DNA from: Argopecten irradians | Taxonomy: Eukaryota > Mollusca > Bivalvia > Pectinida > Pectinidae | Length of the DNA: 64,000 bases | Direction: 5' to 3' | NCBI RefSeq assembly: GCF_041381155.1 | Contig: NC_091140.1 | Location: forward strand, 27,506,952-27,570,951 | Shown: positions 5,498-54,826 of the stretch, piece after piece | How positions within the stretch are numbered: the stretch's first letter is position 1 | Layout: each line of letters starts with the position of its first letter | Notes under the pieces: generated by a model | Database searches by the model: none | Seen by the model: only the letters and a program-made list of their open reading frames with translations | Told to the model about the DNA's origin: nothing | Program-made: the position numbers and the translations under genes

Positions 5498-5930
5498 TTA
5501 GCTCACCTGACCCGAAGGGCCGGTGAGCTTATGTCATGGCGCGGCGTCCGTCGTCCGACGTCCAGCGTCCGTCGTCCGTCCGTCAACATTTCCTTTAAAT
5601 CGCTACTAGTCATAGAGTTCTGCATGGATTGTAACAAACAAGGCGGGACCAAATAAGGTAAATAGAGGTAAATTCTATAAATCGTTACTTGTCCTAGAAT
5701 TCTGCATGGATTATAACCAAATTTGGCCAAAAACATCCTTTGGGGAAGGGGAACAGAACTTTTATAAATTTTGGCTCTGACCCCCTGGGGGCAGGAGGGA
5801 TGGGGCCCAATAGGGGATTTAGAGGAAATTATTCAAATTCCTTCAGAAAAGAAACAATGAACCTGTATTCAGAACATTACTTGGCATTACAAACCAGGTG
5901 AGCGATACAGGCCCTCTGGGCCTCTTGTTA
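5498..5930 (-). mobile_element. Pearl-type element, family D, copy 1
   Basis: Read on the minus strand the element starts AACAAGAGGCCCAGAGGGCC (short hairpin), continues TGTATCGCTCACCTGG, then core repeats (…AGAATTCTATGACTAGTAGC… type), a GACGGACG-rich tract and a 3' hairpin GCTCACC…GGTGAGC followed by TAAAA. A second, longer copy is at 34247-34843. This layout matches the bivalve pearl elements; it is non-autonomous and has no reading frame of its own. Confidence 0.75.
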
Positions 5931-6097
5931 CTTTAAAACAAACTTTCACATGAATAGTGATAAGCGTCATTAAAACATACCGACAAAAAGGATTCTACGT
6001 CTGCCAGTCATCAATGAAATTGGTATTTCCCTGTACCCGGTCTGTGCCTATATAAATAGTTTCCCTACAAGAAACAAACAGTCATGAGATCAAGGGA

Positions 6098-6171
6098 GAT
6101 AACTCCAACATATATATATATATATCACTTATTAGATAACTCCAACATATATATATATATATCACTTATTA
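6098..6171. repeat. Tandem duplication of 37 bp with an (AT)n core
   Basis: Two adjacent copies (6098-6134 and 6135-6171) of a unit starting GATAACTCCAACATATATAT and ending CACTTATTA or near it. This is a recent local duplication around an AT microsatellite. Confidence 0.8.
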
Positions 6172-6785
6172 TTTGACTGGGTGTAAAAACATAAATATGT
6201 TTTATTCAGCTAGAATCATAAGCAGTATAAGCTTGGTTTTTGTTGGATTTGCAAACATTCAGTGCTGCATTCGTGAAAAAGAAGGTCCAATAACACCACA
6301 TAATTTGCTTTCGTAGAAATCAGGATTTAATTGTTACATACATACTGACATAGGTGTTTACGTTATGACAGAAATTGAGTAGATCTGGATTAAAAATAAC
6401 GTTCTGAAACGGTATGTTTATAAAACTATAAGTTAATACATAAATAATGTTCAATTGTTATATAACATTCACCAGTACAACGCTTTTACGGCAACTGAAT
6501 TTCGTGACTCCAGAGGGTGTACAGAACTCTTGATACATTGACTATAGGACTAATAAGTTTAATAAATTCAGATATAGATTGTAGGTTATCGAAGCATTAT
6601 CGGTACTTCAGGGTTTACTATTACTGTCGTAATATCCAACCATGAAATAGGTCATAGTAAAACTGAGGGCATTTCAGGAGAGAAAAAAACCCTTCCAATT
6701 CAAAGACGCCCAACTTTATAACAATACAGTGAACCGTTTTTGGTTTCTGTTGACATACATCAAAGGAGCAAACTAACTGTTTTAT

Positions 6786-9590
6786 CTGTTAGCGCACAGA
6801 GCCTTCATTTTTTATATGACATAGTGACAGTGACAGTCACCTAAGGAACTGTTAGCACACACACAGCCTTCAGTTTTGATATGACATAGTGACATATACA
6901 GTCACCTAAAGAACTGTTAGCGCACACACAGCCTTCAGTTTTGATATGACATAGTGACAGTGACAGTCACCTAAGGAACTGTTAGCACACACAGATCCTT
7001 CAGTTTTGATATGACATAGTGACATATACAGTCACCTAAAGAACTGTTAGCGCACACACAGCCTTCAGTTTTGATATGACATAGTGACATATACAGTCAC
7101 CTAAGGAACTGTTAGCGCACACACAGCCTTCAGTTTTGATATGACATAGTGACAGTGACAGTCACCTAAGGAACTGTTAGCACACACACAGCCTTCAGTT
7201 TTGATATGACATAGTGACATATACAGTCACCTAAAGAACTGTTAGCGCACACACAGAGCCTTCAGTTTTGATATGTCATAGTGACAGTGACAGTCACCTA
7301 AGGAACTGTCAGCGCACAGATCCTTCAGTTTTGATATGACATAGTGACAGTTACAGTCACCTAAGGAACTGTCAGCGCACAGAGCCTTCAGTTTTGATAT
7401 GACATAGTGACAGTTACAGTCACCTAAGGAACTGTCAGCACACACAGCCTTCAGTTTTGATATGACATAGTGACAGTTACAGTCACCTAAGGAACTGTCA
7501 GCGCACAGAGCCTTCAGTTTTGATATGACATAGTGACAGTAACAGTCACCTAAGGAACTGTCAGCACACACAGCCTTCAGTTTTGATATGACATAGTGAC
7601 AGTTACAGTCACCTAAGGAACTGTCAGCGCACATAGCCTTCAGTTTTGATATGACATAGTGACAGTTACAGTCATCTAAGGAACTGTCAGCACACACACA
7701 GCCTTCAGTTTTGATATGTAACAGTCACCTAAGGAACTGTAAGCGCACACACAGCCTTCAGTTTTGATATGTCATAGTGACAGTAACAGTCACCTAAGGA
7801 ACTGAAAGCGCACACAGATCCTTCAGTTTTGATATGACATAGTGACAGTTACAGTCACCTAAGGAACTGTTAGCGCACACACAGCCTTCAGTTTTGATAT
7901 GACATAGTGACAGTGAAAGTCACCTAAGGAACTGTCAGCACACACAGCCTTCAGTTTTGATATGACATAGTGACATATACAGCCACCTAAGGAACTGTCA
8001 GCACACACAGCCTTCAGTTTTGATATGACATAGTGACAGTGACAGTCACCTAAGGAACTGTCAGCGCACAGATCCTTCAGTTTTGATATGACATAGTGAC
8101 AGTGACAGTCACCTAAGGAACTGTTAGCGCACACACAGATCCTTCAGTTTTGATATGTCATAGTGACAGTGACAGTCACCTAAGGAACTGTCAGCACACA
8201 GATCCTTCAGTTTTGATATGACATAGTGACAGTGACAGTCACCTAAGGAACTGTCAGCGCACAGAGCCTTCAGTTTTGATATGACATAGTGACAGTTACA
8301 GTCACCTAAGGAACTGTCAGCACACACAGCCTTCAGTTTTTATATGACATAGTGACAGTTACAGTCACCTAAGGAACTGTCAGCGCACAGAGCCTTCAGT
8401 TTTGATATGACATAGTGACAGTTACAGTCATCTAAGGAACTGTCAGCACACACACAGCCTTCAGTTTTGATATGTAACAGTCACCTAAGGAACTGTAAGC
8501 GCACACACAGCCTTCAGTTTTGATATGTCATAGTGACAGTAACAGTCACCTAAGGAACTGAAAGCGCACACAGATCCTTCAGTTTTGATATGACATAGTG
8601 ACAGTTACAGTCACCTAAGGAACTGTCAGCGCACAGATCCTTCAGTTTTGATATGACATAGTGACAGTGACAGTCACCTAAGGAACTGTCAGCGCACAGA
8701 GCCTTCAGTTTTGATATGACATAGTGACAGTAACAGTCACCTAAGTAACTGTAAGCGCACACACAGCCTTCAGTTTTGATATGACATAGTGACAGTGACA
8801 GTCACCTAAGGAACTGTTAGCGCACACACAGAGCCTTCAGTTTTGATATGACATAGTGACAGTAACAGTCACCTAAGGAACTGTTAGCGCACACACAGCC
8901 TTCAGTTTTGATATGACATAGTGACAGTAACAGTCACCTAAGGAACTGTTAGCGCACACACAGCCTTCAGTTTTGATATGTCATAGTGACAGTAACAGTC
9001 ACCTAAGGAACTGTTAGCGCACACAGATCCTTCAGTTTTGATATGACATAGTGACAGTGACAGTCACCTAAGGAACTGTCAGCACACACAGCCTTCAGTT
9101 TTGATATGACATCGTGACAGTAACAGTCACCTAAGGAACTGTTAGCGCACACACAGCCTTCAGTTTTGATATGACATAGTGACAGTGACAGTCACCTAAG
9201 GAACTGTTAGCGCACACACAGAGCCTTCAGTTTTGATATGTCATAGTGACAGTGACAGTCACCTAAGGAACTGTTAGCGCACACACAGCCTTCAGTTTTG
9301 ATATGACATAGTGACAGTAACAGTCACCTAAGGAACTGTAAGCGCACACACAGCCTTCAGTTTTGATATGACATAGTGACAGTTACAGTCACCTAAGGAA
9401 CTGTCAGCACACAGATCCTTCAGTTTTTATATGACATAGTGACAGTGATAGTCACCTAAGGAACTGTTAGCGCACACACAGCCTTCAGTTTTGATATGAC
9501 ATAGTGACAGTTACAGTCACCTAAGGAACTGTCAGCACACAGATCCTTCAGTTTTGATATGACATAGTGACAGTGACAGTCACCTAAGGA
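6786..9590. repeat. Minisatellite of about 65-bp units, roughly 43 copies
   Basis: The unit begins AACTGTTAGCGCACACACAG, continues CCTTCAGTTTTGATATGACA and ends GTCACCTAAGG. Length varies (63, 65 or 67 bp) through a CA dinucleotide tract. Variants (GTTAGC, GTCAGC, GTAAGC; AGAGCC or AGATCC; ACATATACAG or ACAGTGACAG) are interspersed, and there is a longer-range period of about 756 bp. Runs of 63-bp units keep one frame open on the minus strand (CADSSLGDCHCHYVISKLKA-type peptide), but the frame is lost wherever the unit length changes, so I read this as non-coding satellite DNA. Confidence 0.95.
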
Positions 9591-9983
9591 ATACTAAAGA
9601 TGGGTTTGAACAATAACATTAGCATAATACACAATAAAGTGTAAAATACAATAAAGTGTAAAATATGAGTGTATAAAATAAGTTGGCTGTTTGACAGAAG
9701 AGCGAGAGTGCCAATAGCTAATATTCAGGAATACCGATGTAAAGTGGAGTCATAAGTATTAGATAATACGGAGACTTTGATTATTGAGAATTTTGAACAC
9801 CAATTGCTAACCTGTGTTGCTTTCTCATCCGTTGTAGTAAATGTATTGCGATTCAATTGATAATTAGAAAGGCATGATATATTAATTTATATTTAAATAT
9901 ACCCGGTAAATAAGCAAATCATATACATAAAGTATATTACACGTTATTGTTCATTAGGCTTTGAAGTTAGAGAGTATACCAAA
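9591..9983. other. AT-rich spacer, nothing recognised
   Basis: About 390 bp between the minisatellite and the stop codon of the lectin/WSC gene. It presumably includes that gene's 3' UTR. ACAATAAAGTGTAAAATA occurs almost twice near 9630-9660, on the strand opposite to the gene. Confidence 0.4.
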
Positions 9984-11285
9984 TCACCCTTCAACGATTT
10001 CTAGATAGTCTCTATTCGTGTCTACTGACGATATATAATCGTATGTTACAGCATTCTGTTGGAGGTCGCAATACTGGGCACTTTCTCTAGGGTTTAAGTG
10101 GTCGTAATTGGCGTCCAGATTATCATCATTTCGTCCATTTACGATCGCCCTTTCTTCCACTACCTTTTTTCTGTGCCGTAAAATGGCAAGAGCTGTTAAC
10201 ACAATCACCAACGTGGTCACCACACCCACTGCAATTCCGACCACTAGGGACCGCACGTTCAAATCATCACGTGAGATCGTGCTGTTGACGTCCATGTGTG
10301 TAGTTGTGTCATCACTTTTGTCTGCTGCTTCACACAGCAAAGGTAACGTGGTGTTACAATTATTCACAGATGTCTCTAACACACCATCCATATTAATAGT
10401 AACAGAAATGCAATCAAAATATCCATTTTGGTTTAATGTATTCCCCCATTGAAATGTTTCCTGTCGAAATATCCCGATCCAGTGCTGGCCATTCGGGAGG
10501 TTCCGGATGTCAAAATTGCCACTGTAGAATTGTCTTCTGTGTTCACGATGACAGGCCAGTCCAGCGTAAGCCCAGTTTACTTCATTTTTGTAAAGTTCTA
10601 CATCATTTCTTCCGCTCCGTCTTTGGCAAAGGAATGAATGACGTTCATCACAGTCCTTTGTACGAAACGTTCTATCTTCACGATTTACCTGCATAATTTT
10701 ACAATTCCCAATTTCATTATCCTCAGCTAAATTCAATGGTTCATAGACACAAATACAGCTACGTCTACCCTCCACTGTGTTTCCACACAGCTCATCGCCA
10801 TTTCTTGGACACTTCGCGGCCCTGCAGTAATCATCATAATCCTCATCTTCGAAAGTTCTAGTAGTATCAAAACAAAAACAACGCTCGGATGTTAATCCGA
10901 AACTCGATCCCTCGCAATAACTTGAACATTCTTTTACATTGTTTCTCCCTATCACAGATTTATATCTGCTTGAGTCGATTAAAAAGCATCCTCGAATTTG
11001 CATCCATTTTGTGTACTGGACGCGTGCAGCAATCCAGTACTCTTGAGTTCTTCCCACACCTAGACGTGACGCCCGAAACACACGAATGTCGTCGAGATTT
11101 TGATTGGTGAACGACTGACCCAATAGTTGACATCCAGGCTGATTAAATCCGTCTCCCCATACATAGTTACCCTGGAGAACACTAACGTTCTTTGGAACAA
11201 GGCACATTCCGAAGATACATTGAATGGACACAAGCACCACTTCAAAACAACGGCAAGAAAGCATAGTACCGGTCACATATGGCAT
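9984..11285 (-). CDS. WSC / C-type-lectin-like transmembrane receptor with ITAM-like tail
   Basis: A single open frame of 433 residues from the ATG at 11285-11283; a second ATG at 11264 starts MLSCRCFEVVLVSIQCIFGM, a weak signal peptide. Numbering from the first ATG: about 38-96 looks like the first half of a C-type-lectin-like domain (…EYWIAARVQYTKW); 99-182 is a WSC-like cysteine-rich module (GCFLID…ECSSYC…CFCFD…KCPRNGDELCGN); 194-220 looks like the end of the lectin fold (GNCKIMQ…DERHSFLCQ); 238-319 is a second lectin-like segment (HWIGIFRQETFQWG…LLCE). A Thr/Ser stalk and a transmembrane helix at 347-369 with an RHRKK stop-transfer follow. The tail holds YDHL, YCDL, YDYI and YLEI. The frame stays open upstream to about 11374, so an upstream exon is possible. 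A carbohydrate-binding surface receptor that signals through Src/Syk-type kinases is a reasonable inference; ligand unknown. Confidence 0.85.
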   Translation of the reverse strand: MPYVTGTMLSCRCFEVVLVSIQCIFGMCLVPKNVSVLQGNYVWGDGFNQPGCQLLGQSFTNQNLDDIRVFRASRLGVGRTQEYWIAARVQYTKWMQIRGCFLIDSSRYKSVIGRNNVKECSSYCEGSSFGLTSERCFCFDTTRTFEDEDYDDYCRAAKCPRNGDELCGNTVEGRRSCICVYEPLNLAEDNEIGNCKIMQVNREDRTFRTKDCDERHSFLCQRRSGRNDVELYKNEVNWAYAGLACHREHRRQFYSGNFDIRNLPNGQHWIGIFRQETFQWGNTLNQNGYFDCISVTINMDGVLETSVNNCNTTLPLLCEAADKSDDTTTHMDVNSTISRDDLNVRSLVVGIAVGVVTTLVIVLTALAILRHRKKVVEERAIVNGRNDDNLDANYDHLNPRESAQYCDLQQNAVTYDYISSVDTNRDYLEIVEG

Positions 11286-12659
11286 AGGGGACACACAATC
11301 TAAACCATCGAAAATATGTAAATAAATGTTAGCGATGACAATAATGACACGAACAGCATCCGGACCCTTGTCTGTTTAGGAGAGATAAGATATGACTAAT
11401 TCGTAAGTGTAAAGGTCACAGTGTCAGTCTCTGTATATTAGATGTACAGTAATAAGAGCTGGGCTGACTTCCGTCAACAATTTCAATTATGTATATACAA
11501 GCTATAAACATCAAAATAATAGCTAAACTCGATAGTCGAAGTGACTCGATGTCCAAATTGCAAACAAAAGGAGGATCTATTTAGTGACGTCATCATAGGG
11601 AGATGTTGGTGACGTCAAAATTGGAGATCTAAGAATAGTTGCTGCTTCCTATTGCATTTGCCATTCTATCTTCAATTTTGGTGCAATTTATCAATAAAGA
11701 TGTTTTTGTGACGTTCATTACTATTTTTAGAATAAAATGGTGGTAATAACGATGGTGACAGAAACTATCGTTATTAATGATTAATGGTCTAAAATTCATT
11801 TTGTAATGTTCACGACAAATTTACCTGTCAAATTTTTTTTCTAAAATTGTCGCTATGCTTGTTCCAGGTCATGAGCCAACTTTTTAGAAAATATTTTTGG
11901 TGCACTCAAACTGGAAGTGGGTGAATCCCCTTTGTTAATAATTGACATGGCCGAAAATAACATCAAAATTTTTGACATTTTCTGTTTTAGAAAATGTAAC
12001 CAAAATTTGTATTTGTTACAGTTTATCTACATGTTTTTGATCATAGTATGTAATTATTTATACTCTTCAGAAAATAATACAGTTTGACGACATAAAACAT
12101 AATTTTGATACCGTTTTGTATCAAAAAGAGAACCGTCTTTACACCTCCACAGGGCAATTTTAATTTGGCCATAGCACAGGCCCCTGGGACCTTTTGAATT
12201 TTTTAAACGTATTTCAAGGGTTGGCATTAATGTTGTTACACATAACATTTAGTTTTAATAAAATTGGTTCGTGGGCAAACGTAAGTAGGGTTTTAATATA
12301 TTTTTACACTGGTTTTATGAGCTTAATTTTAAGCAACGCCTTCACTGAGGTGGGATTTTAGAATTTTGCCTGCTCTCCCACTGCATTAAAACCTATCCAT
12401 TGTAAGTATTATAATAATTGAAATATTGATAACTTTCAGTGGTGGGTAACATTAAAATTTCTTCTTGATTCGTTAGAATGCATATTACAGCACATATAAC
12501 TTTAAGTGTTATAGTTTCAATGTAAGCGTAATAATCTGGAATCAGTGTAGACTATTTAGATTAATTATATAATTATCTTTAAAAACTCGAAAAAATAAGT
12601 TCTGTGCCTGCAGTAGTTGTTCATCTTGGTAATACGTTGTCTTCGTCGTCACCGTACAT
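11286..12659. other. AT-rich intergenic DNA, no gene recognised
   Basis: About 1.4 kb upstream of the lectin/WSC gene and so its likely promoter side. A possible splice acceptor (tctcctaaacag on the minus strand) lies near 11375. No TATA box stands out. No coding potential is seen between 11.4 and 12.6 kb. Confidence 0.35.
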
Positions 12660-20926: not shown

Positions 20927-30484
<9,558 letters not shown>

Positions 30485-31748: not shown

Positions 31749-31946
31749 TGTTTATCACATAACTGACCCGTTCAGCCATGACATACGGTCATGTCAGAAA
31801 TATAAGTAAGACTCTCATGTAATAACACTATTGTGACATCACGATAATAATGACATCATAATCAAAATATGACGTCATACGATTGTCTCGGTAGCCAAAA
31901 AAAAGTCTGATTTTGCCACTCTTCTATATTAGTTATGTGATAAACA
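31749..31946. repeat. MITE-like element with 16-bp terminal inverted repeats
   Basis: TGTTTATCACATAACT at 31749-31764 is the exact complement of AGTTATGTGATAAACA at 31931-31946. The inside holds several TGACATCA/TGACGTCAT motifs. The right end overlaps the first bases (ACAAGAG) of the adjoining family C pearl element. Confidence 0.75.
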
Positions 31947-33021
31947 AGAGATCCCAGAGGGATCTTGGCGCCCACCAAAGAATGATCTATATCTGACAAA
32001 GGAAAGATGGATCTTTTCTTTACTTTTTAAACTTTTTCAAACATACTACATATAAAATTTGAGACAGATCGCTCCAGTACCTTTTGAGAAATAGCGGTAA
32101 CAAACTTCAACTATCAAAATCCAAGATGACTCCTTGGCGGCCATCTTGTTGATCAATCGGTCCCAAATCACAATATGCACAACTAGGGCCCCAGGGGAAC
32201 CTACATGTGAAATTTGAGAAAGATCCATTCAATACTTTCTGAGAAATAGCGATAACAAACTTTGAATATAAAAATCCAAGATGGCTGCCTGGCAGCAATT
32301 TTGTTGACCGATCGGTCCCGAATCACAATATGCACAACTAGGGCCCTAGGGGAACCTACATATGAATTTTGAGACAGATCCCTTCAGTACTTTCTGAGAA
32401 ATAGCGATAACAAACTTTGAATAACAAAATCCAAGATGGCTGCCTGGCGGTCCCAAAATGCAATATGCACAACTAGGTCCCTAGGGGAACCTACATATGA
32501 AATTTGAGACAGATCCCTTCAGTACTATCTGAGAAATAGCGATAACAAACTTTAACTATCGAAATCCAAGATGGCGGTCGTTTGAACAAAATCCCTTCAG
32601 TAGTTCTCAAGAAATATCGATAACAAACTTCAACTGCCAAAATCAAAGATGGCTGCCTGGCAGCCATCTTGTTTTTCCAATCAGCCTCAAAATCTGTATG
32701 GCATAACTAGGGACCAAGGGTAACCTCCATGTGAAGTTTGAACAAAATCCCTTTAGTAGTTCTCAAGAAATATCGATAACAAACTTCAACTGCCAAAATC
32801 AAAGATGGCTGCCTGGCGCCAGATTGTTTTTCCGATCAGCCTCAAAATCTGTATGGCACAAATATGGACCAAGGGGACCCTCCATGTGAAGTTTGAACAA
32901 AATCCCTGCAGCAGTTTTTAAGAAATAGTGATAACAAGCATTGTTTACGGACGAACGACGGACGACAGACCACGGACGCAGGGCGATTTGAATAGCCCAC
33001 CATCTGATGATGGTGGGCTAA
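31943..33021 (+). mobile_element. Pearl-type element, family C, long copy
   Basis: Starts AACAAGAGATCCCAGAGGGA (hairpin GATCCC…GGGATC), then TCTTGGCGCCCACCAAAGAA. About six core units of 110-150 bp follow (ATCCAAGATGGCTGCCTGGC, GGTCCCAAAATGCAATATGC, ACTAGGGCCCTAGGGGAACC, TTCAGTACTTTCTGAGAAAT). It ends with GGACGAACGACGGACGACAG and the 3' hairpin GCCCACCATCtgatGATGGTGGGC followed by TAA. No encoded protein. Confidence 0.88.
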
Positions 33022-34179: not shown

Positions 34180-34246
34180 AACCTCAAATTATATATGGCT
34201 GTCTACTCTGACTATAATTGTATGTAAAACAGTTACAGTAAAACTA
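34180..34246 (+). repeat. First part of a split tandem array
   Basis: TATATGGCTGTCTACTCTGA, then TGTATGTAAAACAGTTACAG and TAAAACTAA. The same unit (about 95-110 bp) continues at 34850-35050 on the far side of a pearl-type insertion. Confidence 0.7.
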
Positions 34247-34843
34247 ACAAGAGGCCTAGGGGCCTGTATCGCTCACCTGGTTATTGTAATGCCAAGTAAT
34301 GTTCTGATTACAGGATCATTGTTTCTTTTCTGAAGGCATTTAAGGTTAAATCTTTTATTTCCCTATTGGGACCAATTCTTTCTGCTTCAGGGGGTCAGAG
34401 CCAAAATTTATACACTCTATGATCCCCTTCACCAAAGGATGTTTCTGGCCAAATTCGGTTACATTCCATGCACAACTCTATGACTAGTAGCGATTTAAAG
34501 AATTTACCTCTATATTCCTTATTGAGCCCTGCTCCTCCTGCCCCCAGAGGGTTAGAACCAAAATTTATACAAATTCTGTTCTCTTTCCTCCAAGGATTTT
34601 TCTGGATAAATTTGGTAACATTCCATGCAGAATTCTATGACTAGTAGTGATTTAAAGGGATTACCTCTACTTCCCCTATTTGGCCCCGCCCCCGGGGGTT
34701 AGAGCCAAAATTTATACAAACTCTATTACCCTTCCCCCAAGAATTTTTCTGGCAAAATTTGGTTACATTCCATGCAGAACTCTATGACTAGTAGCGATTT
34801 AAAGGAAATGTTGAAAGACGGACGGATAGCCAGATGAGCTAAA
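34247..34843 (+). mobile_element. Pearl-type element, family D, copy 2
   Basis: Starts AACAAGAGGCCTAGGGGCCT, then GTATCGCTCACCTGGTTATT. Three core units of about 155 bp each carry AGAGCCAAAATTTATAC, TTCTGGC…AAATT…GGTTACATTCCATGC and CTATGACTAGTAGCGATTTA. It ends AGACGGACGGATAGCC and GATGAGCTAAAA, with a weakened 3' hairpin. Confidence 0.82.
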
Positions 34844-39889: not shown

Positions 39890-40935
39890 CATTTTCTTGT
39901 TTTGAAATCTAGCAATTATGCACCAAACTGGGCCCTAGGGGAACCTACAATGAAAATTTGAGAAAGAATTTAACTATCTAAATCTTTATTTTTATGCAAA
40001 TGCCCACGTTTATCCCTTAACTTTTCAGGGTATAGCGGTAACAAACTACTAGATGCCGCCCAGATCTTGTTGGCCGAATGGTCCCAAAATGAAATAACAA
40101 CTAAAGTCCCTAGGGGAACCTACCTGCAGCAATCTGAAAAGTCTATCATTAAAAAATCGGCCATCTGACCGATTTTGGCAAAAGCAATATCAAATAGGGA
40201 CCCTAGGGGTAACCTACATGTGTTACAAACTTTCTGAAAAATGTAACAAACTTTAAACTATCAAAATTGGCCCCCCAGCTTTGAAGATACAAAAAGGGGA
40301 GCCTACAGAGAAATTTGACAAAGATCCCTTCACAATGGCAAACAAATGGTAACAAACTTAAACTATCAAAATCCAAGATGGCCGCCAGTCGGCCATCTTG
40401 TTGACAGATTGGTCCCAAAATGCAATATGCACAACTAGGGCCCTAGGGGAACCTACATGTGAAATTTGAGAAAGATCCCTTCACAACTTTCTGAGAAATA
40501 GCGGTAACAAACTTTAACTATCAAAATCCAAGATGGCCGCCAGTCGGCCATCTTGTTGGTCCCAAAATGCAATATGCACAACTAGGGCCCTAGGGGAACC
40601 TACATGTGAAAGTTGAGAAAGATTCCTTCACAACTTTCTGAAAAATAGCGGTAACAAACTTTAACTATCAAAATCCAAGATGGCCGCCAGTCGGCCATCT
40701 TGTTGACCGATTGGTCCCAAAATGCAATATGCACAACTAGGACCCTAGGGGAACGTACATGTGAAATTTGAGAAAGATCCCTTCTGAACTTTCTGAGAAA
40801 TAGCGGTAACAAACATTAAACTATCAAAATCCAAGATGATATTGGTCCCAAAATGCAATATGCTCAACTTCTACATGTGAAATGTTGAGAAAGATCCCTT
40901 CACAACTTTCTGAGAAATAGCATAGGTAAACAAGA
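39890..40935 (+). mobile_element. Pearl-type element, family C, degraded core array
   Basis: Seven or so core units, four of them well preserved (40370-40920: AAAATCCAAGATGGCCGCCA, GTCGGCCATCTTGTTG, AATATGCACAACTAGGGCCC). The first half is heavily decayed and the 5' hairpin start is not seen. It ends at AAACAAGAATTGT, the point where intact copies enter the ACGG tract. Confidence 0.75.
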
Positions 40936-40941
40936 ATTGTC

Positions 40942-42570: not shown

Positions 42571-42654
42571 CTTCCTGTAAATACTAAATGCAGCAAACTA
42601 AAGGGGTCTGAGTGTTGCTTTTTAACTACAGAGAGAGTACCAGAATTGTTAACG

Positions 42655-43797
42655 GATAGACAGAAGGATAACGGACCACGGATGGAAGGATAGACAGAAG
42701 AATAATGGAACCACGGATGGAAGGATAGACAGAAGGATAATGGACCACGGATGGAAGGATAGACAGAGGGATAATGGACCACGGATGGAAGGATAGACAG
42801 AGGGATAATGGACCATGGATGGAAAGATAGACAGAAGGATAACGGACCACGGATGGAAGGATAGACAGAAGGGATAACGGACCACGGATGGAAGGATAGA
42901 CAGAGGGATAATGGACCACGGATGGAAGGATAGACAGAAGGATAACGGACCACGGATGGAAGGATAGACAGAGGGATAATGGACCACGGATGGAAGGATA
43001 GACAGAGGGATAATGGACCATGGATGGAAGGATAGACAGAAGGATAACGGACCACGGATGGCAGGATAGACAGAAGGATAATGGACCACGGATGGAAGGA
43101 TAGACAGAGGGATAATGGACCATGGATGGAAGGATAGACAGAAGGATAACGGACCACGGATGGAAGGATAGACAGAAGGATAATGGACCATGGATGGAAG
43201 GATAGACAGAAGGATAACGGACCACGAATGGAAGGATAGACAGAAGGATAATGGACCACGGATGGAAGGATAGACAGAAGAATAATGGACCATGGATGGA
43301 AGGATAGACAGAAGGATTACGGACCACGGATGGAAGGATAGACAGAAGGATAATGGACCATGGATGGAAGGATAGACAGAAGGATAATGGACCATGGATG
43401 GAAGGATAGACAGAAGGATAACGGACCACGGATGGAAGGATAGACAGAAGGATAATGGACCATGGATGGAAGGATAGACAGAAGGATAATGGACCACGGA
43501 TGGAAGGATAGACAGAAGGATAACGGACCACGGATGGAAGGATAGACAGAAGGATAATGGACCACGGATGGAAGGATAGACAGAAGGATAACGGACCACG
43601 GATTGAAGGATAGACAGAAGGATAATGGACCACGGATGGAAGGATAGACAGAAGGATAATGGACCACGGATGGAAGGATAGACAGAGGGATAATGGACCA
43701 CGGATGGAAGGATAGACAGAAGGATAATGGACCACGGATGGAAGGATAGACAGAAGGATAATGGACCACGGATGAAAGGATAGACAGAGGGATAATC
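42655..43797. repeat. Minisatellite of 34-bp units (about 33 copies) inside a pearl-type remnant
   Basis: The unit is ATGGACCACGGATGGAAGGA followed by TAGACAGAAGGATA. Variants alternate at a few positions (AACGG/AATGG, CCACGG/CCATGG, AGAAGG/AGAGGG). The left flank reads AGAATTGTTAACGGATAGAC and the right flank CATCTCATGATGACGGCCTAAAA, both resembling the 3' part of family C. Because 34 leaves remainder 1 on division by 3, all three minus-strand frames read the same peptide cycle (PSVYPSIRGPLSFCLSFHPW) and long open frames result. These are not genes. Confidence 0.95.
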
Positions 43798-44823: not shown

Positions 44824-45385
44824 AAACAAGAATTCCACAGAAGTGGATGTGTTGCCTGCACAGCATCCCAAAATACTACTATTTACAGTTGAAAATATAG
44901 TTAATAATTAGGTGTAGTTATCAAGTCTCGTAACTCTTGCCAATTTTGATGGATTTTGACCAGTATCGAACCCATCTAAGATCTAATTGATATAAAGCAA
45001 TATACCAAAATTGGTTGAAATTGGACAACAAATGACAACAAATACTAAAGTTTATGAGTGGAAACCATGGATTTATCTGTTTTAATGATTTAAAAGTCCC
45101 ATAACTCCTGCAAATATTGACGGATTTTGATCAGTATCAAACCCATCGAAGATCTCATTGATATAAAGCAATATACCAAAATTGGTTGAAATTGGACAAC
45201 AAATGACAACAAATACTAAAGTTTTTGAGTGGAAACCATGGATTTATCTGTTTTGCCGATTTTGAAGTCCTGTAACTCTTGCAAATATTAATGGATTTTG
45301 ACCATTATTAATCTCATCCGAGCTTATTGATGTAAAGCAATATACCAATTTTTTTTTTGAAATCAGACAATAAATATTTAAGTTA
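44824..45385 (+). mobile_element. Pearl-type element, family E, 3'-truncated copy
   Basis: Starts AACAAGAATTCCACAGAAGTGG (hairpin TTCCAC…GTGGA). About three core units of 155-160 bp follow, with TCTCGTAACTCTTGCCAATT, ATATAAAGCAATATACC and GGTTGAAATTGGACAACAAA. The 3' hairpin seen at 25080-25120 is missing. Confidence 0.78.
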
Positions 45386-45465: not shown

Positions 45466-45894
45466 AACAAGAGGCCCAAGGGCCTTAACGGTCATCTGAC
45501 TACCTTGACAATAGTCATATAGGAAATTAATTAGATATAGTAGCCATCTTCAATTTGGGACAACCAGAGATTAACTACACTTTGTCAGCACCAGGTAAGG
45601 ATCATATTTCATGCAAGTTTCAGCCAAATGGCACAGGTAGAACTTGAGAAGAAGTTCAAAATGTGTTTTCAAGATGGCGGTTGTGGAGGCCACCTTGAAT
45701 TTCGGATCAACCCCGAAAAATAACAACACTTTGTCAGGATCATTTCATTAAAGTTTCAGCCAAATCGCATCAGTAGAACATGAGAAGTTCAAAATGTGTA
45801 AAGTTAACACACAGCGGACAACGCACGGCAGACGTCAAAGGACGAAACATGACGACTGTAGGTCATCCTGACCCTTCCGGGTCAGATGACCTTA
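45466..45894 (+). mobile_element. Pearl-type element, family B, copy 2 (short)
   Basis: Starts AACAAGAGGCCCAAGGGCCT, then TAACGGTCATCTGACTACCT. Fewer core units than the copy at 28979. It ends GGACGAAACATGACGACTGT, hairpin CTGACCCTTCCGGGTCAG, then ATGACCTTAAAA. Confidence 0.82.
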
Positions 45895-46300: not shown

Positions 46301-49300
46301 TAGTTTCTGTCTCAGGGGACAATAAAAGTGCTATTATCCTAATATCCATTCAATAAAGGTATATATTATTGCCAAAAAAGGAATGATATTATCAATTCAA
46401 AAATGCTCATACCATTTTTTTCTTCATAGTTCATACTTATACCAGTTCATACAGTTTACTTAAACAGAGAGTGGTAATATTTACTTGCTGTGAAAAACGA
46501 TAACTGTAATCCAAACAAGTATTGTGAATGCGTCATTAACAGTTTTTATAACCTGTATGACGTCGTTCAATAAAGAAAAAAATGTGTTAAAATGTTAATC
46601 AGCACAACAGGACATAAGGGTTCACACAAAAAACAGAAACTTATACCTGACCATAATTACTAATTGTGAAACTCCTAATTATAGGACTTTTTCAAACTGA
46701 GATGGCGTAACCATTTAGTGTTTTAATATACACTGATTTTCTGAGAACAGTAACCGTGATTAGCTTCCATGACCTCAATGCCAGCCCAGAAACCCAACAT
46801 TGTATCCTCACGATGTGCTAATGTGTAGCTTCGTGGAAATTCATAGAAATATTTTTGGGAAATATATATTGGCTTGTCAAAATAAGTAGCCATGAAATCT
46901 TGCAATTGTTTGGTGTTGTAACCTCATCTTAGGCCATCGTTATACATTTTCTGATGTTATTAATGTTTTTAAGAAACCTTTTTCTCTGATGAAAGGTAGT
47001 GGGCCTTTAAATCTGATTAATTTATTGCAATGCAGATGCCTTGACTGGCATCTCATAGTGATAAAAAAGGTACCAGGTGCATCATGGAAGGTGTTTCCTG
47101 TTTGTTTTCAGCAGTAATACTGGCATCATATGGTTTGTTGTGTCCCTAAATGGGAAAGGTTGGACATTTGCAGGATCATACCAACAAATGACAATGTCCA
47201 ATTGCTTTGCATTGCCGAGACGGATAAAGCCATATCATCAAGAGCCGCGAGGGCTGCAATGGTTTATCATTTTGTTACCTTATCCTACTATTAGCCTCCA
47301 CGTCTGAAGTCACGCTAAAGTACTTCTCAGGTCCGGGTTTTTCTAGTTGGTATCCCTGTTGTCCTTTAAAACCCATCTAAAACTGGTACGCCTAATTGAC
47401 CCTGGCTTTTAATTCAAGCAAAACTAATCAAACCAACACCATACAAGAGCCAAATCAGTTCTTACCATCGGCCAAATGCTGCAATCTAATAACAAAAAGA
47501 GAGGGGTCGAAATTCTTTCGGAAGTATGTCACAGGAATGTTATTTACAGTAGGATTCCCGCTTAGATTGAATATGTCATTTTCCGGGAACAAAATATGCA
47601 AATTGGAGTATTCGATATCTCGGAGATGACATTTTGCACCTCCGTTTGACCCACACAAAGTATGTGAATACCCTCGGGTAGAATCGTTTCCGTTTTTTTT
47701 TTTTTTTTTCTTTGTTAATACGTAAATTTTTTACACTTAAAAATGAGTCATAAAGTAATTATTTTCCCCGAAGCTGTAAATCGATTTTAATTGTTTAATA
47801 ACAAAAATATTCCATATTAGATTGTGTTTAAGTTTGATCGACAATGACAGATTGAGATTTGAGAAACAGCTAAACGATCGATATCAAATGCAATTAGATT
47901 CTACTAAACAGGATTGGATTTGTGTCTACAATTCTGAACCTAAATAATAAACAAATTTACGTACATTTGCCTGGCAAAATGAACTTACGATCGTGATTAA
48001 ACTTCAAAGTGCCGATCAACTAGTAGTGTTGTTTTAACATGTGTATATGAATTCAAAAATGGCGGCAGGTGATGAATCCATGCGTTCACTCGACCTAAAT
48101 GTGTTTTTGAGAATTTTCCCTGTATTTTTGATCTATACGGTGAATAGCTTGATAACATTTCAGAAATTAATGCATATTCAATTAGCAATGAAACAACGTA
48201 GCAAGTATCTTTTTGTATCCTAAGCTTACATACTGTACGAAACTTGCGGTAGTCATTGCACGCCGACTTTGCATGCTTTTATGTCTCGTTCAACGAGACG
48301 CTTGATACGCACATGTCTGTCGTAGTCAACAAGACTCTGGTTGAACGAGACTACTCATCATGAATGGCGATTGTTGTAAGGAAGCATGGTTTCTCCAACC
48401 GATCGCGAACTAAGGTACGTTACGTTAATATATAAACATATTTCAAAATGCAAATGCTTTAATTAGATGTTTGAGTCAGTGAATATACTAAAGTTATGAT
48501 CAACCGCTGCTGATGTAAATCGTAACAGCGTCGAATACCTTTGCAGATTCATGCATAAAATAACAAGCCATACTATAACGTTAATCTGTTACCAGGATGA
48601 TTTCTAGTAAAAGCGAAGTATCTTGAAACATATATCGGCGAATTTCGCTAAAAATATATTGCAACATTGAAAAATATTCGATTTTATTTTTAGAATTTCC
48701 CAAATATTTTATTCAAATAACCGGAGGTCATGTAAAAGTCTATGCAAATACACGGAGTTGAAAAACAAAGATAAAGAAGGAAAAAATCGGGACCGCAGAA
48801 TTTTATGCAAATAACCGAAATATTCGAATAACCGTTATTCGATTATGTGGAGTCCTCTGTAATGCCTACAACATAGTACAACCTTACATAATGTTCTCAG
48901 GAAATCTAGTGGGAGGAAGCCAACAACAACTAATCACCTACAGATATTAAAGACATTAATAGTAACAGATGAAAAAAACTCTCACTTTCAATACATGTTT
49001 TATAAATTACAGGTCAAAAATCAAATTATATTTGATGCATAATTTAACATCAGCTAGACAGGCATCAATTAATATTTATCAATATAAATTAAATTTCCCT
49101 TCATTATATGTGCTTTCACTGCTTTATATTTGAACAGTACACAGCAATGATGTTCTGACAAAAAATTCTGATGTCATATTGTAAGGCAATGAATTTCTAG
49201 ACAGATTAAATTTGAAAATAGATCCATTTATTAAAAGAAAACAAAATAGCTGACACCTGGTCTGACAACTATAATCCAGGATCAGCTAAGATCTAATCGA

Positions 49301-50059
49301 TTCTCTCATCTGTGGAAGAATAAATATGCTCAGAGTGTCAATTCCCTGTATCGGCCGAGGCAAGTACACAAAACTATATCAACACCCTATAGTTCTCCAT
49401 TCAAAATCTTTGTTAACATATGTGTGACAACCTACATATATGCCGCTGTTGGATTTTTCCAATTAATCTATCCACTAACACTTTGGATGGTAATCTCTTT
49501 CAAGTTGACTTTTACAGGTATTCGAAATGAAAACATAAGCATTATATACCGGGATACCATGTTCTAGAACCCCCCCACTGAGAAATTCCGAGACCCCACT
49601 AGGCTTTCAAGTTGACCCCCTATGAAGAATAGAAAATAAACAAACAATAACTACCTGGCCAATTTCAATTGCAAATCCACAATAGCTAGGTGTTAAATGG
49701 GCTTTCCTTACCTGATATGTAGGAGAGGGGCCCCCGATTACTGCCAAATGTAAACAATCATTACCGCGCTTGAAGAAAATCACCTGGTCGTTGATAATGG
49801 TATTCCTGGGACATGTTAATGTATATATATTACACAGACTGGAATTATATTGCTATATTCTACCTGTAAGATCCTATCTAATGCTCATCAGTCTTTATAC
49901 ATTTTAATCATGCAGCATATAATGTAGATACTTAACTCAATCATTAATTATTTATACAAAGTCTCTGTTCAATCAAGTAGCAAACACAACTGGATTATAA
50001 GTCATAATTTATATACTGAACTTCTAAAAATGTTATTGTAAATGAGATATGTACGCCAT
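46301..50059. other. No gene recognised
   Basis: AT-rich DNA. 46920-47010 (TAGGCCATCGTTATACATTT … AGGTAGTGGGCCTTTAAAT) resembles 63740-63870. A poly-T lies near 47693-47710. Around 48250-48420 GC content rises and a short frame ATGAATGGCGATTGTTGTAA occurs, but no exon can be supported. Confidence 0.35.
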
Positions 50060-50514
50060 TCAACATAATCCCAGAGGGGTCTTTGCGCCCACCTATGAAA
50101 TTTGGAAGAAGGAACATTTCCCTGTTTTTTTCTTTTTTCCTTGAAATATTTAAAACAAATAGGAAAACCTCACATTAAGTCTGCTTAGAAGCAACACACT
50201 TCAATATGTCAAATTCAAGATGACTCCTTTCCATGATGTCATTGGATTTGTTCTATTTGCAAAATTATATATAAGTATCAAGTATACTCTGAACATTAAA
50301 TTTTTTTAGGAAGTGTCAAAATTCAAGATGGCTGCTAATTATATAATAGGCCAATTAAGTTGTTTTCTGATCGTTTGCAAAATACAATAGGTAGAACTAT
50401 AAGAACCAAGAGTAATCTACATATGAAATTTCAGAGAGACTCCTCAATAGATTATGTGAAATAGTGATAAAAAAAACTTCCATTAACAAAATCAATGATA
50501 AACAAATTTTAATC

Positions 50515-51042
50515 CAGAGACAAATAGTTATTTATAGTTGAAAATTTTGTTAATAATTAAGTGAATTCCCATAACTCTTGCAAATATTGATGGATTTTGA
50601 GATCGAAGCATCAAACCCATCTAATTATAATATCTCATTGATATAAAGCAATATACCAAATTTGGTTGAAATCGGACAAATTACACTAAAGTTGTCAAGC
50701 GGAAACCATAAATCAAAGATTTTAAAGTCCTGTAACTCTTGCAAATATTGACGGATTTGCCAGTATCAAATCCATCTAAGATCTCATTGATATAAAGCTA
50801 CATACCAAATTTGGTTGAAATTGGATGATAAATATTTAAACATGGATTTATCTGTTTTGACGATTTTAAAGTCCCGTAACTCTTGCAAATATTGACGGAT
50901 TTTGACATTATTAACGTCATCCAAGATCTCATTTATATAAAGCAATATACCAAATTTGGTTGAAATCGAACTATAAATACTAAAGAAATCGAGCGCAAAC
51001 CGTTTCCTTGACACTGATGCTGACATAGTGATACAGGCAACA
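50515..51042 (+). mobile_element. Pearl-type element, family E, nested copy
   Basis: Three core units (CCCATAACTCTTGCAAATAT, TCATTGATATAAAGCAATAT, AATTTGGTTGAAATCGGAC) and the 3' end CTGACATAGTGATACAGGCAACACAAAA. The 3' hairpin is eroded compared with the copy in the GLIS2-like intron. It interrupts family C sequence. Confidence 0.72.
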
Positions 51043-51112
51043 CAAAAACCAAGATAGCTGCCAATTGCCTATTGGCCATCTTATTGTCTGATTCCAATTC
51101 CATAATTGACAT

Positions 51113-51655
51113 ATGTAGCGGGATTGGACTAGGTTGATCATTGATAACTATAGGTAGCTCAGTCGGTAGAGCACTCGGCTAGTGTTCGGAGGGTCCCAGG
51201 TTCGAATCCCGGTCTGGCCGCTACATTTTCTCCTTTCCTGTTACAGAATTGGCACTCAACTAAATAACCCAGGGTGTTGGTGTTGGAAGGGTCTTGTATG
51301 TTTTCCAGGGGAGGCTTTGAGAAAGGAGGGAGGAGTGTAGCGAGATTGGACTGGGTCGATCATCAGTGACTTATCTAATGGGTAGCTCAGTCTGTTGAAC
51401 ACTCAGCTAGTGTTCGGAGGGTCCCGGATTTGAATCCCAGTCTGGCCGCTACATTTTCTCCTCTCCTGTTACAGAATTGGCGCCCAACTAAATAACCCAC
51501 AGTGGTGGTGTTTGGAGTCTTGTATGTCTTCGAGGCCAAAGACTTCGAGAAAGGGGTGTAGTGGGATTGGACTGGGTTGGTAGAGCACTCGACTAGAGGG
51601 TTTGGATGGTCCCGGGTTCGAATCTCAGTCTGGCTGCTACATTTTCTCCTCTCCT
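51113..51655 (+). mobile_element. tRNA-derived SINE-like units in tandem (about 2.5 copies)
   Basis: Each unit of about 220 bp starts GTAGCGGGATTGGACTAGG and contains a tRNA-like head with box A (TAGCTCAGTCGGTAGAGC) and box B (GGTTCGAATCCC), then CGCTACATTTTCTCCTTTCC and a unique body. The first copy has the best boxes (51150-51225); later copies are eroded. The acceptor stem does not pair, so this is not a functional tRNA. Further decayed copies lie at 56185-56420 and 57190-57300. Confidence 0.72.
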
Positions 51656-51815
51656 ATCAAATATACACAATTATAGGCCAAGGGAAACCTACATATAAAA
51701 TCTGAGATTCCATTATTACTTTCGGAGAAAAAGCGGTAGCAAAAATTGTTTACAGATAGGCAGTGCAGTCGACCGATGGCAATTTGAATTGCCTTCCTTC
51801 TGATGATGTTGGGCT

Positions 51816-53942
51816 AATATTCATGCACCTATCATATAGTAAGTCCATAAACTGAAAAAAAAATTAAAGTTAAGTAGTTCCTATAGATTCATATTGTTGA
51901 TTTAACAAAAAGCTCCGGCTATGAATAACAATATGTACCAGTACATGTGCAATATCAGATTCTCATTATATCTACTATCTATCTTGTCTCCCTTGAATGA
52001 TTACAAATCACCCCTGCACTACCAAAAACAAACATCTGTCACCTTACATCAAAACAACCATACTAAAACCAATTATGACATGAGATCAATGGTATACTGA
52101 AACCTATAATTAAACATTTCCCCTAATTTTCCCCAGGACTTTTTTCCACTTTCTTTTCATTACACATGGTATCGCAGAAACCCTTTATATGAATCTGCAT
52201 GAAGATCTTTCAGTTTTCGAATATCGAACTTCAATGATGACCAACTGTCAATTGACTGTTTTGGTTATCAGATCAAACATCCACATTAAGTGATAGTTAG
52301 ACCAAAGAAAACACACCTGCACATCATGAATAAAGAGAAACTTTCATTGCAATAAAGTTGGATCAAGTTGGACCTGCAATTACATGTATTCAATCCGCAT
52401 AGTTATTGAAATATCATACTTGATAACCATGTTATACCTTTCAGTATAGACCTTTGTAATTCCAGCATAGTTACAGAACATGGTCAATTGAGTAGTCTTA
52501 TTATCATTTTAACTATAAAAAGAATTAAGTCATTTCTCAGTATATTTGACTCCTGTCATTACACCTATCGGTCTCATTGAAGAATCTTAGCACATATCAC
52601 ACCTGTGACTTGAACAAAGGTCAAGGACATTTATTCGAACAAATTAAACAGTCCTTCATGCAAACATGCTACCTTACATTTGCTACCAGGTATAAAGTAG
52701 AAGTTGCAAATATATACATATTGATCGAAGCAAAAAAAATAATCTCAGATGAACAAAACAGATCCAAAATGGAATAGACAATTCTTTCTCTTACCTTGGA
52801 CATTGGACAGAGAAACCTATATATAGTGTTGGGAATCGGTTTAGATTTCATCATAGATGGGTTGCCATGAAGGCATTTTGTTTTCATATTGGATTTATTC
52901 TACATAGTGTATAATACTATTTTATTATCAGATTGACTCAAGTAACAATCTTTATTGATGAACATATTAGGCCAAAAAAATAATATGTCTGTTTAGGGTT
53001 ACCCGACCAACCCTAATTTTTACTCTCGACCCTAACTTTTTCGCACTTTTCTACAAACAAAAAATATTTGAAAGTCGGGATATCAATCTCAGACTCTGGT
53101 TCCGGTCAATATTTTAGAGCGAAAGACAAAAATCTGTCCCACCTACCGCTCCTATTTTTTGAGTGAAGAGAGAAACAGCATAAACTCTACTCTCTAAGGA
53201 AAAATGAAAGTAGAATTCCTACTTCCTGTTTTGATACCAATCATCGATGTTGATGCATCATAATCGATTAATCGTAATTGGTTATCTTTTTAGATACGAC
53301 ATCGATTATAATTGATCATTGTGACAACACTATGTCTTAATACTTCCTGTAAAATTTCTTTTATCCTACCAAGGGTTAGTCACCATATAATATGATCAAT
53401 GTTATGATGTCATGACATTATTATAATGACAGTCTTCAAGTGTACCAATTAACTATCAACTGTATACATTGTATAATCATTAAATCAATATTTAATAGGT
53501 GTAATAGGTAAGAGACTGAGATCACAGCTCTTGATACCTTTATTTCAAATGACAACTAGAATATACAAAAAACTTCTTTCATCGGCTTAATTCAATTTCT
53601 GAGACACTGTGATTTAAGATAGACCATCCCTTCTGGTTTCCTCTCAAGGATTTTGTTCTTTTTTTATATTTTGATTATAGGTATACCCTGATCACAAATA
53701 CCACATAAAAATCATATGTCACCGAGTTAATTTTTCTTCCATGGTTGCTTAAAAATATGTACTAATGACATAAATTTCCGGATTTTAAGGATTTTTAAAT
53801 AAATAATATTTCCTCCGTGTAACATCTATTAACATATAAAGAATATGCCCGTAACATGTTCATACCTTGAGTAGGTAATAAAGAATTCATAAATATATCA
53901 AATAAGCTGGGTTTTACACAATAAAATGAAATATCATTATTT
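51816..53942. other. No gene recognised; dispersed repeat at 52985-53220
   Basis: AT-rich DNA. 52985-53220 has a more structured, GC-richer stretch (GGGTTACCCGACCAACCC, ACCCTAACTTTTTCGCAC) that looks repeat-derived but has no second copy here. Confidence 0.35.
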
Positions 53943-54826
53943 AACAAGAGATCCCAGAGGGATCTTGGCGCCCACCAAAGAATGATCTATGTCTGACAAT
54001 GGAAAGAGGGATCTTTTCTCTGCTTTTCAAACTTTTGCAAACATACTACATATAAAAATTTGAGACAGTACTTTCTGAGAAATAGCAGTAACAAACTTCA
54101 ACTATCAAAATCCAAGATGGCTCCTTGGCGGCCATCTTGTTGATCGATCGGTCCCAAATCGAAATAAGCACAACTAGGGCCCTAGGGGAACCTATATATA
54201 TGAAATTTGAGACAGATCCCTTCAGTACTTTCTGAGAAATAGCGATAAGAAACTTTAAGTATCAAAATCCAAGATGGCTGCCTGGCGGCCATCTTGTTGA
54301 CCGATTGGTCCCAAAATGCAATATGCACAACTAGGGCCCAAGGGGACCTACATATGAAATGTGAGACAGATCCCTTAAGTACTTTCTGGGAAATAGCGAT
54401 AACAAACTTTAAGTATCAAAATCCAAGATGGCTGCCTGGCGGCCATCTTGTTAACCGATTGGTCCAAAAACGCATTATGCACAACTAGAGCCCTAGGGAA
54501 ACATACATATGAAATTTGAGAAAGATCCCTTCAGTACTTTCTGAGAAATGAAGATAACAATCTTTAACTATCAAAATCAAAGATGGCTGCCTGGCGGCCA
54601 TCTTGTTGACCGATCGGTCCCAAAACGCAATATACACAACTAGGGCCCTAGGGGAACCTACATATGAAATTTGAGACAGATCCCTTCAGTACTTTCTGAG
54701 AAATAGCGATAACAAGAATTGTTTACAGACGGACGGATGGACGGACGGACGGACGGACGGACGGACGGAAGGACCACGGACAAAAAGCGATTTGAATAGC
54801 CCACCATCTGATGAAGGTGGGCTAAA
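53943..54826 (+). mobile_element. Pearl-type element, family C, well-preserved copy with (ACGG)n
   Basis: Starts AACAAGAGATCCCAGAGGGA, then TCTTGGCGCCCACCAAAGAA as in the 31943 copy. About five regular core units of roughly 148 bp follow, then a pure GGAC/ACGG microsatellite near 54727-54772, then ATTTGAATAGCCCACCATCT and the hairpin ending GGTGGGCTAAAAA. This is the clearest example of the family. Confidence 0.9.

What the first reader, a model, noticed from the sequence alone, without database searches (positions are those of the whole stretch)
5498..54826. Four sequence-unrelated repeat families share one pearl-like blueprint
Families B (28979, 45466), C (31943, 53943 and partial copies), D (5498, 34247) and E (24494, 44824, 50515) have different core sequences but the same order of parts. 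Each complete 5' end starts AACAAGA, at once followed by a short hairpin (GGCCC/GGGCC, GATCCC/GGGATC, GGCC/GGCC or TTCCAC/GTGGA). Core units of about 150 bp follow in tandem, then a GACGGACG or CAGACGCAG tract, then a 3' hairpin and an A-rich end. A shared frame with swapped cores suggests one mobilisation machinery served several cargo sequences. Pearl elements from bivalves are established knowledge; the shared AACAAGA start across four families in one 64 kb window is what I see here.
Basis: partly seen in the sequence, partly recalled or inferred. Interest (0 to 1): 0.72.

Follow-up and report, generated by a model that had tools for sequence, protein, structure and literature searches.

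The report
Jumping-DNA families sharing interchangeable end modules
The window holds four families of small rolling-circle jumping elements of an already known type that share one end plan but carry different repeated middles, and the same genome holds a large protein-coding element whose two ends match one of these families, which is the likely machine that moves it.

Summary
The repeats are real, but the plan is a known one read backwards. Pearl and oyster Cg_HINEs are already filed there, and unrelated cores in related ends are published for oyster. Exact palindrome+terminus patterns occur 5,871 (D/B type), 3,592 (C) and 345 (E) times; each reversed pattern 0 times.

New here: an autonomous Helentron (Rep family, PIF1 helicase, weak endonuclease match; ~18.6 kb, middle unread) whose two ends and two flanking core arrays are family B. 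Five copies end in TCTTGTT with different flanks; two share the 5' start. A sister element, 90% identical over 4.6 kb but with another 3' module, also stops at TCTTGTT in three further copies. The oyster authors could not link any autonomous Helentron to their HINEs.

Against "one machinery, several cargoes": only B has a shown partner; subTIRs and palindromes are family-specific; 30 Rep loci form 13 clusters. An old D-type end inside the sister element suggests that cores are swapped by read-through past the terminator (inference).

The parts
28979..29763 (-). HINE B1: 5' subTIR/IR hairpin at 29763 side, microsatellite, about 4 x 146-bp core, 3' end TCTTGTT at 28979
   Evidence: ends and core match the autonomous Helentron
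45466..45892 (-). HINE B2: same family, about 2 core units
   Evidence: last 39 bases differ from the autonomous element's by one extra loop T there
31943..33019 (-). HINE C1: 155-bp core, palindrome GATCCC/GGGATC, end TCTTGTT
   Evidence: 3,592 exact palindrome+TCTTGT matches in the genome, reversed control 0
53943..54823 (-). HINE C2: as C1
5500..5929 (+). HINE D1: end TCTTGTT at 5923-5929; reads on the + strand
   Evidence: 5,871 exact GGCCC-type matches in the genome (8 of 8 loci cut out are D-type), reversed control 0
34246..34840 (-). HINE D2: three core units; degenerate 5' hairpin; sits in an array of about 96-bp units
   Evidence: neighbouring array units show the unfilled site
24495..25117 (-). 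HINE E1: about 157-bp core, CAGACGCAG tract; decayed 3' subTIR
   Evidence: 345 exact E-type ends in the genome, reversed control 0
44825..45355 (-). HINE E2, incomplete: 3' end and 171-bp core present, 5' module missing (right limit approximate)
50515..51040 (-). HINE E3, incomplete: core and remnant of the 5' module; no TCTTGTT end (limits approximate)
27533..27750 (.). Partial C-type core copy (limits approximate)
   Evidence: families D4, D9, D10
40295..40930 (.). Partial C-type array without a recognised 3' end
4787..5196 (-). Paralogous unfilled copy of the site that holds B1
   Evidence: left flank of B1 matches 5196-4960 (76%), right flank 4929-4787 (80%); insertion falls in an A-run, no duplication seen

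Best explanation
Families B, C, D and E are HINEs, non-autonomous rolling-circle transposons of the Helentron type. Family B is moved by an autonomous Helentron in the same genome that has the same 5' end, the same 3' end and the same core repeats. Inferred mechanism: the Rep/helicase nicks at the T-run before the 5' subTIR hairpin and peels one strand; the 3' palindrome plus TCTTGT is where it stops and cuts, and the copy joins a T-run without target duplication. The terminus TCTTGT is common to all four families, while subTIR pair and palindrome are family-specific but self-complementary, as if it were a fixed cut site next to an exchangeable recognition address. HINE B is most simply the Helentron minus its coding middle, because core arrays in the same direction flank that middle on both sides and recombination between them would remove it. 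Cores would be exchanged when replication runs past one terminator into a neighbouring element and stops at the next. Shown: anatomy, boundaries of B and of its sister element, shared ends and arrays, empty-site form, internal old ends. Inferred: nicking, termination, deletion and read-through. The confidence given is for the identity and the B partner; for the deletion and read-through steps I would say about 0.5.
For: HINE anatomy in the complete copies. subTIR complementarity is higher within families (mean 8.3, 13 pairs) than across (4.8, 36 pairs); shuffles reaching own score: B2 1, D1 2, C1 12 of 2000. Helitron_like_N: 104 matches. Autonomous B element: five copies (L047, L048, L050, L051, L052) end in the B palindrome and TCTTGTT with five different flanks; BLAST identity of L047 with L048 (97%) and L050 (88%) runs exactly to the last T. 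5' end: L074 and L075 share AGGTCATCTGACCC... with different flanks. In one search (40 of 5,182 candidates scored), 42 rows run from query 618-627, beside the element's A at 629, to 1977-1979, where Helentron-only sequence begins; six shorter rows also start at 624; apart from the query itself no row starts before 618. No HINE 5' terminus of B, C or D type lies between genes and 3' end in L041/L047, L048, L050, L051, L052 and L045; the positive control is exact. Sister element: three copies match L045 to query 1797, 1803 and 1804; 1797 is the last T of its TCTTGTT. PIF1 E 2e-18 on L041, Helitron_like_N E 2e-27 on L034. L048: TCTTGTT is followed at once by a B 5' end.
Against: Of eight Helentron 3' flanks taken, two have a shown own TCTTGTT end (L041, L045), and these two are sisters (90% over 4.6 kb), not independent lineages. 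L043 has such an end whose boundary I did not test. L039's is a nested HINE, since homology runs past it. L040, L042, L044 and L046 showed no end of the four types. Of the seven loci at 78% identity or more, L053 ends TCTTGT-G and L049 shows no B end in 1.5 kb. No autonomous partner found for C, D or E. E1's own 3' subTIR does not pair (1461 of 2000 shuffles reach it). The endonuclease match (19.9 bits) is under Pfam's cut-off of 24.5. About 5.5 kb in the middle of the C9 element were not read. The monomer tree (no support values looked at) is only weakly in favour of array-array deletion: B2's last monomer groups with last monomers of Helentron 3' arrays, but B1's last falls outside and C14's last groups with inner ones. 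The deletion could also have run the other way, a coding block entering a core array.
Confidence: 0.88

Rival explanations
1. One Helentron machinery moves all four families because it reads only the shared terminus TCTTGT and any adjacent hairpin.
For: Identical last 7 bases in the four families and in two autonomous sister elements with different cores; palindromes differ in letters but keep their fold.
Against: subTIRs are family-specific, and the two sister elements share the same B-type subTIR GTCAGATGACC; 30 Rep loci form 13 nucleotide clusters; Thomas et al. define Helentron families by the subTIR (PMC4067079, passages); no C, D or E partner seen.
Confidence: 0.3
2. Each family has its own autonomous Helentron; the shared terminus is common descent of the ends only.
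For: Shown for B; many Rep clusters exist; B and D 5' ends are visibly related.
Against: Partners for C, D and E not found in what was read; the sister element has another core but the same subTIR, so it is not a second family in this sense; TCTTGT is kept although everything next to it has changed.
Confidence: 0.5
3. Retroposed SINE-like or palindromic MITE elements that share AACAAGA by chance or as a target site.
Against: No tRNA or Rfam match inside the elements (the one tRNA match is at 51152-51215); the A-run belongs to the target at B1; TCTTGTT ends elements with a Rep gene; no target duplication seen at B1.
Confidence: 0.03
4. AACAAGA plus hairpin is an internal core motif and not a boundary.
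For: 5 of 9 hairpin-preceded cases in the window are inside C-type cores.
Against: The copies part company there in five B elements and in L045 with three relatives.
Confidence: 0.03

Closest known systems
Cg_HINE elements of the Pacific oyster (PMC7492417; sections 7-9 and passages read)
   Same: 5' subTIR, complementary IR, microsatellite (GTCY/GTCC in several), tandem core often of 140-180 bp, 3' subTIR, palindrome, T-rich insertion without duplication; related flanks with unrelated cores in one group
   Different: No autonomous partner could be related to them there; no shared terminal hexamer is stated in the parts read
Pearl elements (CvA, CvE, CvG; Gaffney 2003, not read, known through passages of PMC7492417 and PMC11136912)
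   Same: About 160-bp core repeats, up to six, modular plan; re-filed as non-autonomous Helentrons
   Different: Sequences could not be compared here
Oyster Helitron-N families sharing Box 4 and Box 5 (PMC8268682, passages)
   Same: Eight families share a 53-bp start and a 42-bp end; eleven satDNAs are tied to boxed elements
   Different: Box letters are in a supplement I could not open, so identity with TCTTGT is untested
DINE-1 and its Helentrons in Drosophila, HINE-Mo in mites (PMC4067079, passages)
   Same: subTIRs, 3' stem loop, TT target, partner encoding Rep/helicase/endonuclease
   Different: Core arrays flanking the coding region on both sides are not mentioned in the passages read

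Membership tests
HINE / non-autonomous Helentron | subterminal inverted repeats at both ends | tested here: met
   B, C, D met; E only when E1's 5' end is set against E2's 3' end (11 of 12 by eye), not in E1 itself
HINE / non-autonomous Helentron | IR complementary to the 5' subTIR | tested here: met
   stems of 8-11 nt in B1, B2, C1, C2, D1, E1; absent in D2
HINE / non-autonomous Helentron | 3' palindrome near the terminus | tested here: met
   GGCCC/GGGCC, GATCCC/GGGATC, TTCCAC/GTGGA; imperfect in B1, D2, E1
HINE / non-autonomous Helentron | microsatellite and tandem core between the modules | tested here: met
   the tract is short in D2
HINE / non-autonomous Helentron | T-rich (TT) target, no target duplication | tested here: met
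   two or more Ts directly before the 5' end in six of seven complete window elements (B2 has TTTT then A) and in L074, L075; unfilled paralogue of B1 and array around D2. Few sites
HINE / non-autonomous Helentron | autonomous partner with same ends encoding Rep/helicase/endonuclease | tested here: met
   B only (endonuclease match weak)
HINE / non-autonomous Helentron | autonomous partner for families C, D, E | tested here: inconclusive
Canonical Helitron | 5' TC and 3' CTRR (recalled; oyster form TC...CTAG in PMC7992393 passages), insertion between A and T | tested here: not met
   ends are AG... (GT... in E) and ...TCTTGT
Pearl | sequence similarity to CvA/CvE/CvG | not testable with these tools
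   Gaffney 2003 not read; no eukaryote repeat library at hand

The most novel reading that the evidence does not exclude
The Helentron 3' end here is a two-part code: a fixed hexamer TCTTGT that marks the cut, and an exchangeable address (palindrome plus paired subTIRs) that changes between families while staying self-complementary. Autonomous Helentrons themselves carry satellite-like arrays on both sides of their genes, so that array recombination keeps producing HINEs and terminator read-through keeps swapping cores; the dispersed satellites of such genomes would be a by-product of this cycle.
Probability: 0.35. Interest if true: 0.68.

Novelty: new member of a known kind. Interest (0 to 1): 0.45.

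Why it matters
In the Pacific oyster a large share of the satellite DNA is tied to Helitron/Helentron elements (PMC8268682, passages), and the relation of these HINEs to autonomous Helentrons 'remains unresolved' (PMC7492417, passage). Here one such family is tied to an autonomous element by both ends and by its core, which makes the origin of the tandem core testable: array-array deletion predicts in-register arrays with 5'-type monomers followed by 3'-type monomers. The kept terminus with changing, self-complementary neighbours also gives a concrete prediction for what the Rep protein reads.

Tried and rejected
Presence of a TCTTGTT end near a Rep gene was first taken as a sign of a partner. 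L039 showed that this is unsafe: its D-type end belongs to a nested HINE (with its own 5' hairpin at reverse-complement position 4906), and homology with L070 and L071 runs on past it. I therefore required that copies in different places stop at the terminus. L040's 3' region turned out to lie in a repeat of about 3.1 kb found in tandem at several places and gave no end. An exact phase match between the 5' and 3' core arrays was considered and dropped, because the C9 3' array has an internal deletion. SINE, MITE and canonical Helitron were considered and rejected (see rivals and membership). Literature: the letters TCTTGTT together with Helitron gave 0 papers, GGGCCTCTTGTT 0, AACAAGAGGCCC four unrelated papers; these searches cover open-licence full text only. 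A scan timed out and was redone more simply. One whole-genome search was left unused (11 of 12 used).
Full report
WHAT IS THERE. Read on the other strand they run: T-run; 5' subTIR and its IR, forming a hairpin (AGGTCATCTGACCCGAAGGGTCAGGATGACCT in B, AGCTCACCTGACCCGAAGGGCCGGTGAGCT in D, AGCCCACCATCATCAGATGGTGGGCT in C, GTGTCGCCTGCAATGCAAGGGCGACAC in E); a GTCC-like or CTGCGTCTG tract; a tandem core of 146 bp (B), 155 bp (C), about 150 bp (D) or 157-171 bp (E); a segment pairing with the 5' subTIR; a palindrome; and the terminus TCTTGTT. This is the HINE anatomy of Thomas et al. (PMC4067079, passages read) and of the oyster Cg_HINEs (PMC7492417, sections 7-9 and passages read).

CHANCE AND SPECIFICITY. 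TCTTGTT is preceded by a perfect hairpin in 9 of its 31 window occurrences, with 0.06 expected from the window's hairpin rate. Four of the nine are element ends (B2, C1, C2, D1); five are inside C-type core repeats, so the motif alone is not a boundary, and other 7-mers reach 8, 8 and 7 through tandem arrays or cores. Genome-wide the case is clear: exact palindrome-plus-terminus patterns occur 5,871 times (GGCCC type with loop 3-12; the 8 of 8 loci cut out are D-type), 3,592 times (C) and 345 times (E) in 846 Mb, and each pattern read backwards occurs 0 times. Across one example of each family the last seven bases are identical. The 5'-3' subTIR pairing is family-specific: mean score 8.3 for 13 same-family pairs, 4.8 for 36 cross-family pairs. 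It fails in E1, whose 3' subTIR has decayed. B and D 5' ends are related (20 of 24 columns), and B and C cores share a short CAAGATGGC palindrome, so the families are not wholly unrelated.

THE AUTONOMOUS ELEMENT. The Rep-type domain Helitron_like_N gives 104 matches in the genome. The 30 loci taken form 13 nucleotide clusters. Eight 3' flanks were read. For the element at C9, a search with its 3' untranslated stretch brought copies of which L047, L048, L050, L051 and L052 end GTCAGATGACCGTTAAGGCCCTTTGGGCC-TCTTGTT, each followed by a different flank; BLAST identity of L047 with L048 (97%) and L050 (88%) runs exactly to the last T, while with L051 and L052 the alignment breaks off earlier, inside the core arrays, and the end is seen by its letters. 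L053 has a TCTTGT-G variant and L049 shows no B end within 1.5 kb. Two B core units lie just inside this end in C9, C607, C510 and C15 and three in C14 (anchor counts). On the other side, 5' of the genes, the same element starts TTTTT-AGGTCATCTGACCCGAAGGG..., followed by nine 146-bp B core units. The C363 copy shares this start with a different flank. In one search (40 of 5,182 candidates scored), 42 rows run from query 618-627 to 1977-1979 (the element's A is 629; Helentron-only sequence begins after 1979); six shorter rows also start at 624, and apart from the query itself none starts before 618. No HINE 5' terminus of B, C or D type lies between the genes and the 3' end (positive control exact). 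The element spans C9:37370589-37389204, about 18.6 kb, of which 37377261-37382743 was not read; it contains an old nested C-type HINE that the C510 copy also has. It encodes a PIF1 helicase (E 2e-18) and has a weak endonuclease match (19.9 bits, cut-off 24.5); Helitron_like_N was scored by genome search on C9 and as a protein on the related L034.

THE SISTER ELEMENT. L045 (C11) is 90% identical to the C9 element over 4.6 kb from within the Rep/helicase gene and 71% over the next 1.3 kb, then differs. Three further copies match L045 up to query 1797, 1803 and 1804, where 1797 is the last T of its TCTTGTT. So nearly the same machine carries another 3' module, with the same kind of subTIR (GTCAGATGACC). 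Inside that module an older D-type end (TCTTGT-C) lies 516 bases before the present end; I read it in L045, L055 and L056, and the C449 copy matches through it. In one search (39 of 7,767 candidates scored), 27 rows that begin at 833-869 stop at 1275-1300, where 1280 is the last T of that old end, and eight rows run on through it to 1453-1620. I read this as a terminator that was passed and replaced. L048 carries a B element directly head-to-tail behind the Helentron, TCTTGTT-AGGTCATC, and L050-L052 carry an extra end 130 bp inside the final one.

A WARNING CASE. L039 has a perfect D-type end 2.1 kb behind a Rep gene. It is a nested HINE: homology to L070 (99%) and L071 (85%) runs past it. L043, in another Rep cluster, has a similar end that I could not test; L040, L042, L044 and L046 showed none of the four types.

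TARGET SITE. The site holding B1 has an unfilled paralogue in the window (5196-4787 on the minus strand); the insertion falls in an A-run with no duplication seen. D2 sits in a local array whose other units show CT-AAAA at the same point. Two or more Ts stand directly before the 5' end in six of seven complete window elements (B2: TTTT then A) and in L074 and L075.

HOW IT WORKS. Shown: boundaries of B and the sister element, shared ends, shared core arrays, empty-site form, internal old ends. Inferred from what is known of Helitrons (recalled): nicking at the T-run, strand displacement, stop and cut at palindrome plus TCTTGT. Inferred from the arrays: HINE B arose by loss of the coding middle between direct core arrays. 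The monomer tree (support values not looked at) helps only a little: B2's last monomer groups with the last monomers of the C9, C607, C510 and C15 3' arrays and most inner monomers of HINEs with the 5' array, but B1's last falls outside both and C14's last groups with inner ones; monomers of 100 bases or less were dropped. The reverse order, gene block into array, is not excluded.

WHAT IS KNOWN AND WHAT IS NOT. Related ends with unrelated cores are published for oyster (PMC7492417 section 8; PMC8268682 passages). The autonomous partner was stated as unresolved there (PMC7492417). The listings of searches in the open-licence library, and passages of PMC7992393, PMC10294476 and PMC11136912, showed no paper that links one in a bivalve. 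The organism here is unnamed; that it is a bivalve is an inference, not a tool result.

Noticed in passing
window 42654-43796: 34 copies of a 34-bp tandem repeat, 94% alike; the long open frames there are probably repeat artefacts.
   Followed up: no
window 6795-9591: About 44 copies of a 65-bp tandem repeat, 90% alike.
   Followed up: no
window 61495-63053: Nested foldback structure, arms of 242 nt at 97% and several shorter pairs; looks like a foldback element.
   Followed up: no
window 51114-51554: 228-bp repeat in two copies with a tRNA-like stretch (Rfam tRNA 31.6 bits at 51152-51215; ARAGORN finds none), possibly a tRNA-derived SINE.
   Followed up: no
window 3072-4025: Open frame of 317 aa with an apolipoprotein L domain, E 6e-19.
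   Followed up: no
window 20927-21634: Open frame of 235 aa with one C2H2 zinc finger.
   Followed up: no
window 27585, 32667, 40396, 40551, 40698: C-type core repeats contain a palindrome such as TGGCTGCC/GGCAGCCA followed by TCTTGTT, a look-alike of the element's own 3' end inside the core.
   Followed up: partly
L040 region, also C11:480278-487917, C12, C13, C5, C691: Unit of about 3.1 kb, repeated in tandem at several places, next to a Helentron Rep gene in L040.
   Followed up: no
L072:980-1357 and L072:2213-2792: Two likely insertions inside the C9 Helentron: the first skipped by the C363, C654, C510 and C14 copies (7-bp overlap of the C363 pieces), the second a high-copy repeat of about 580 bp skipped by the C14 copy.
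   Followed up: no
L010, L011, L012, L013, L022: Helentron Rep loci 99.3-99.9% identical; recent movement or duplicated contigs of the assembly.
   Followed up: no
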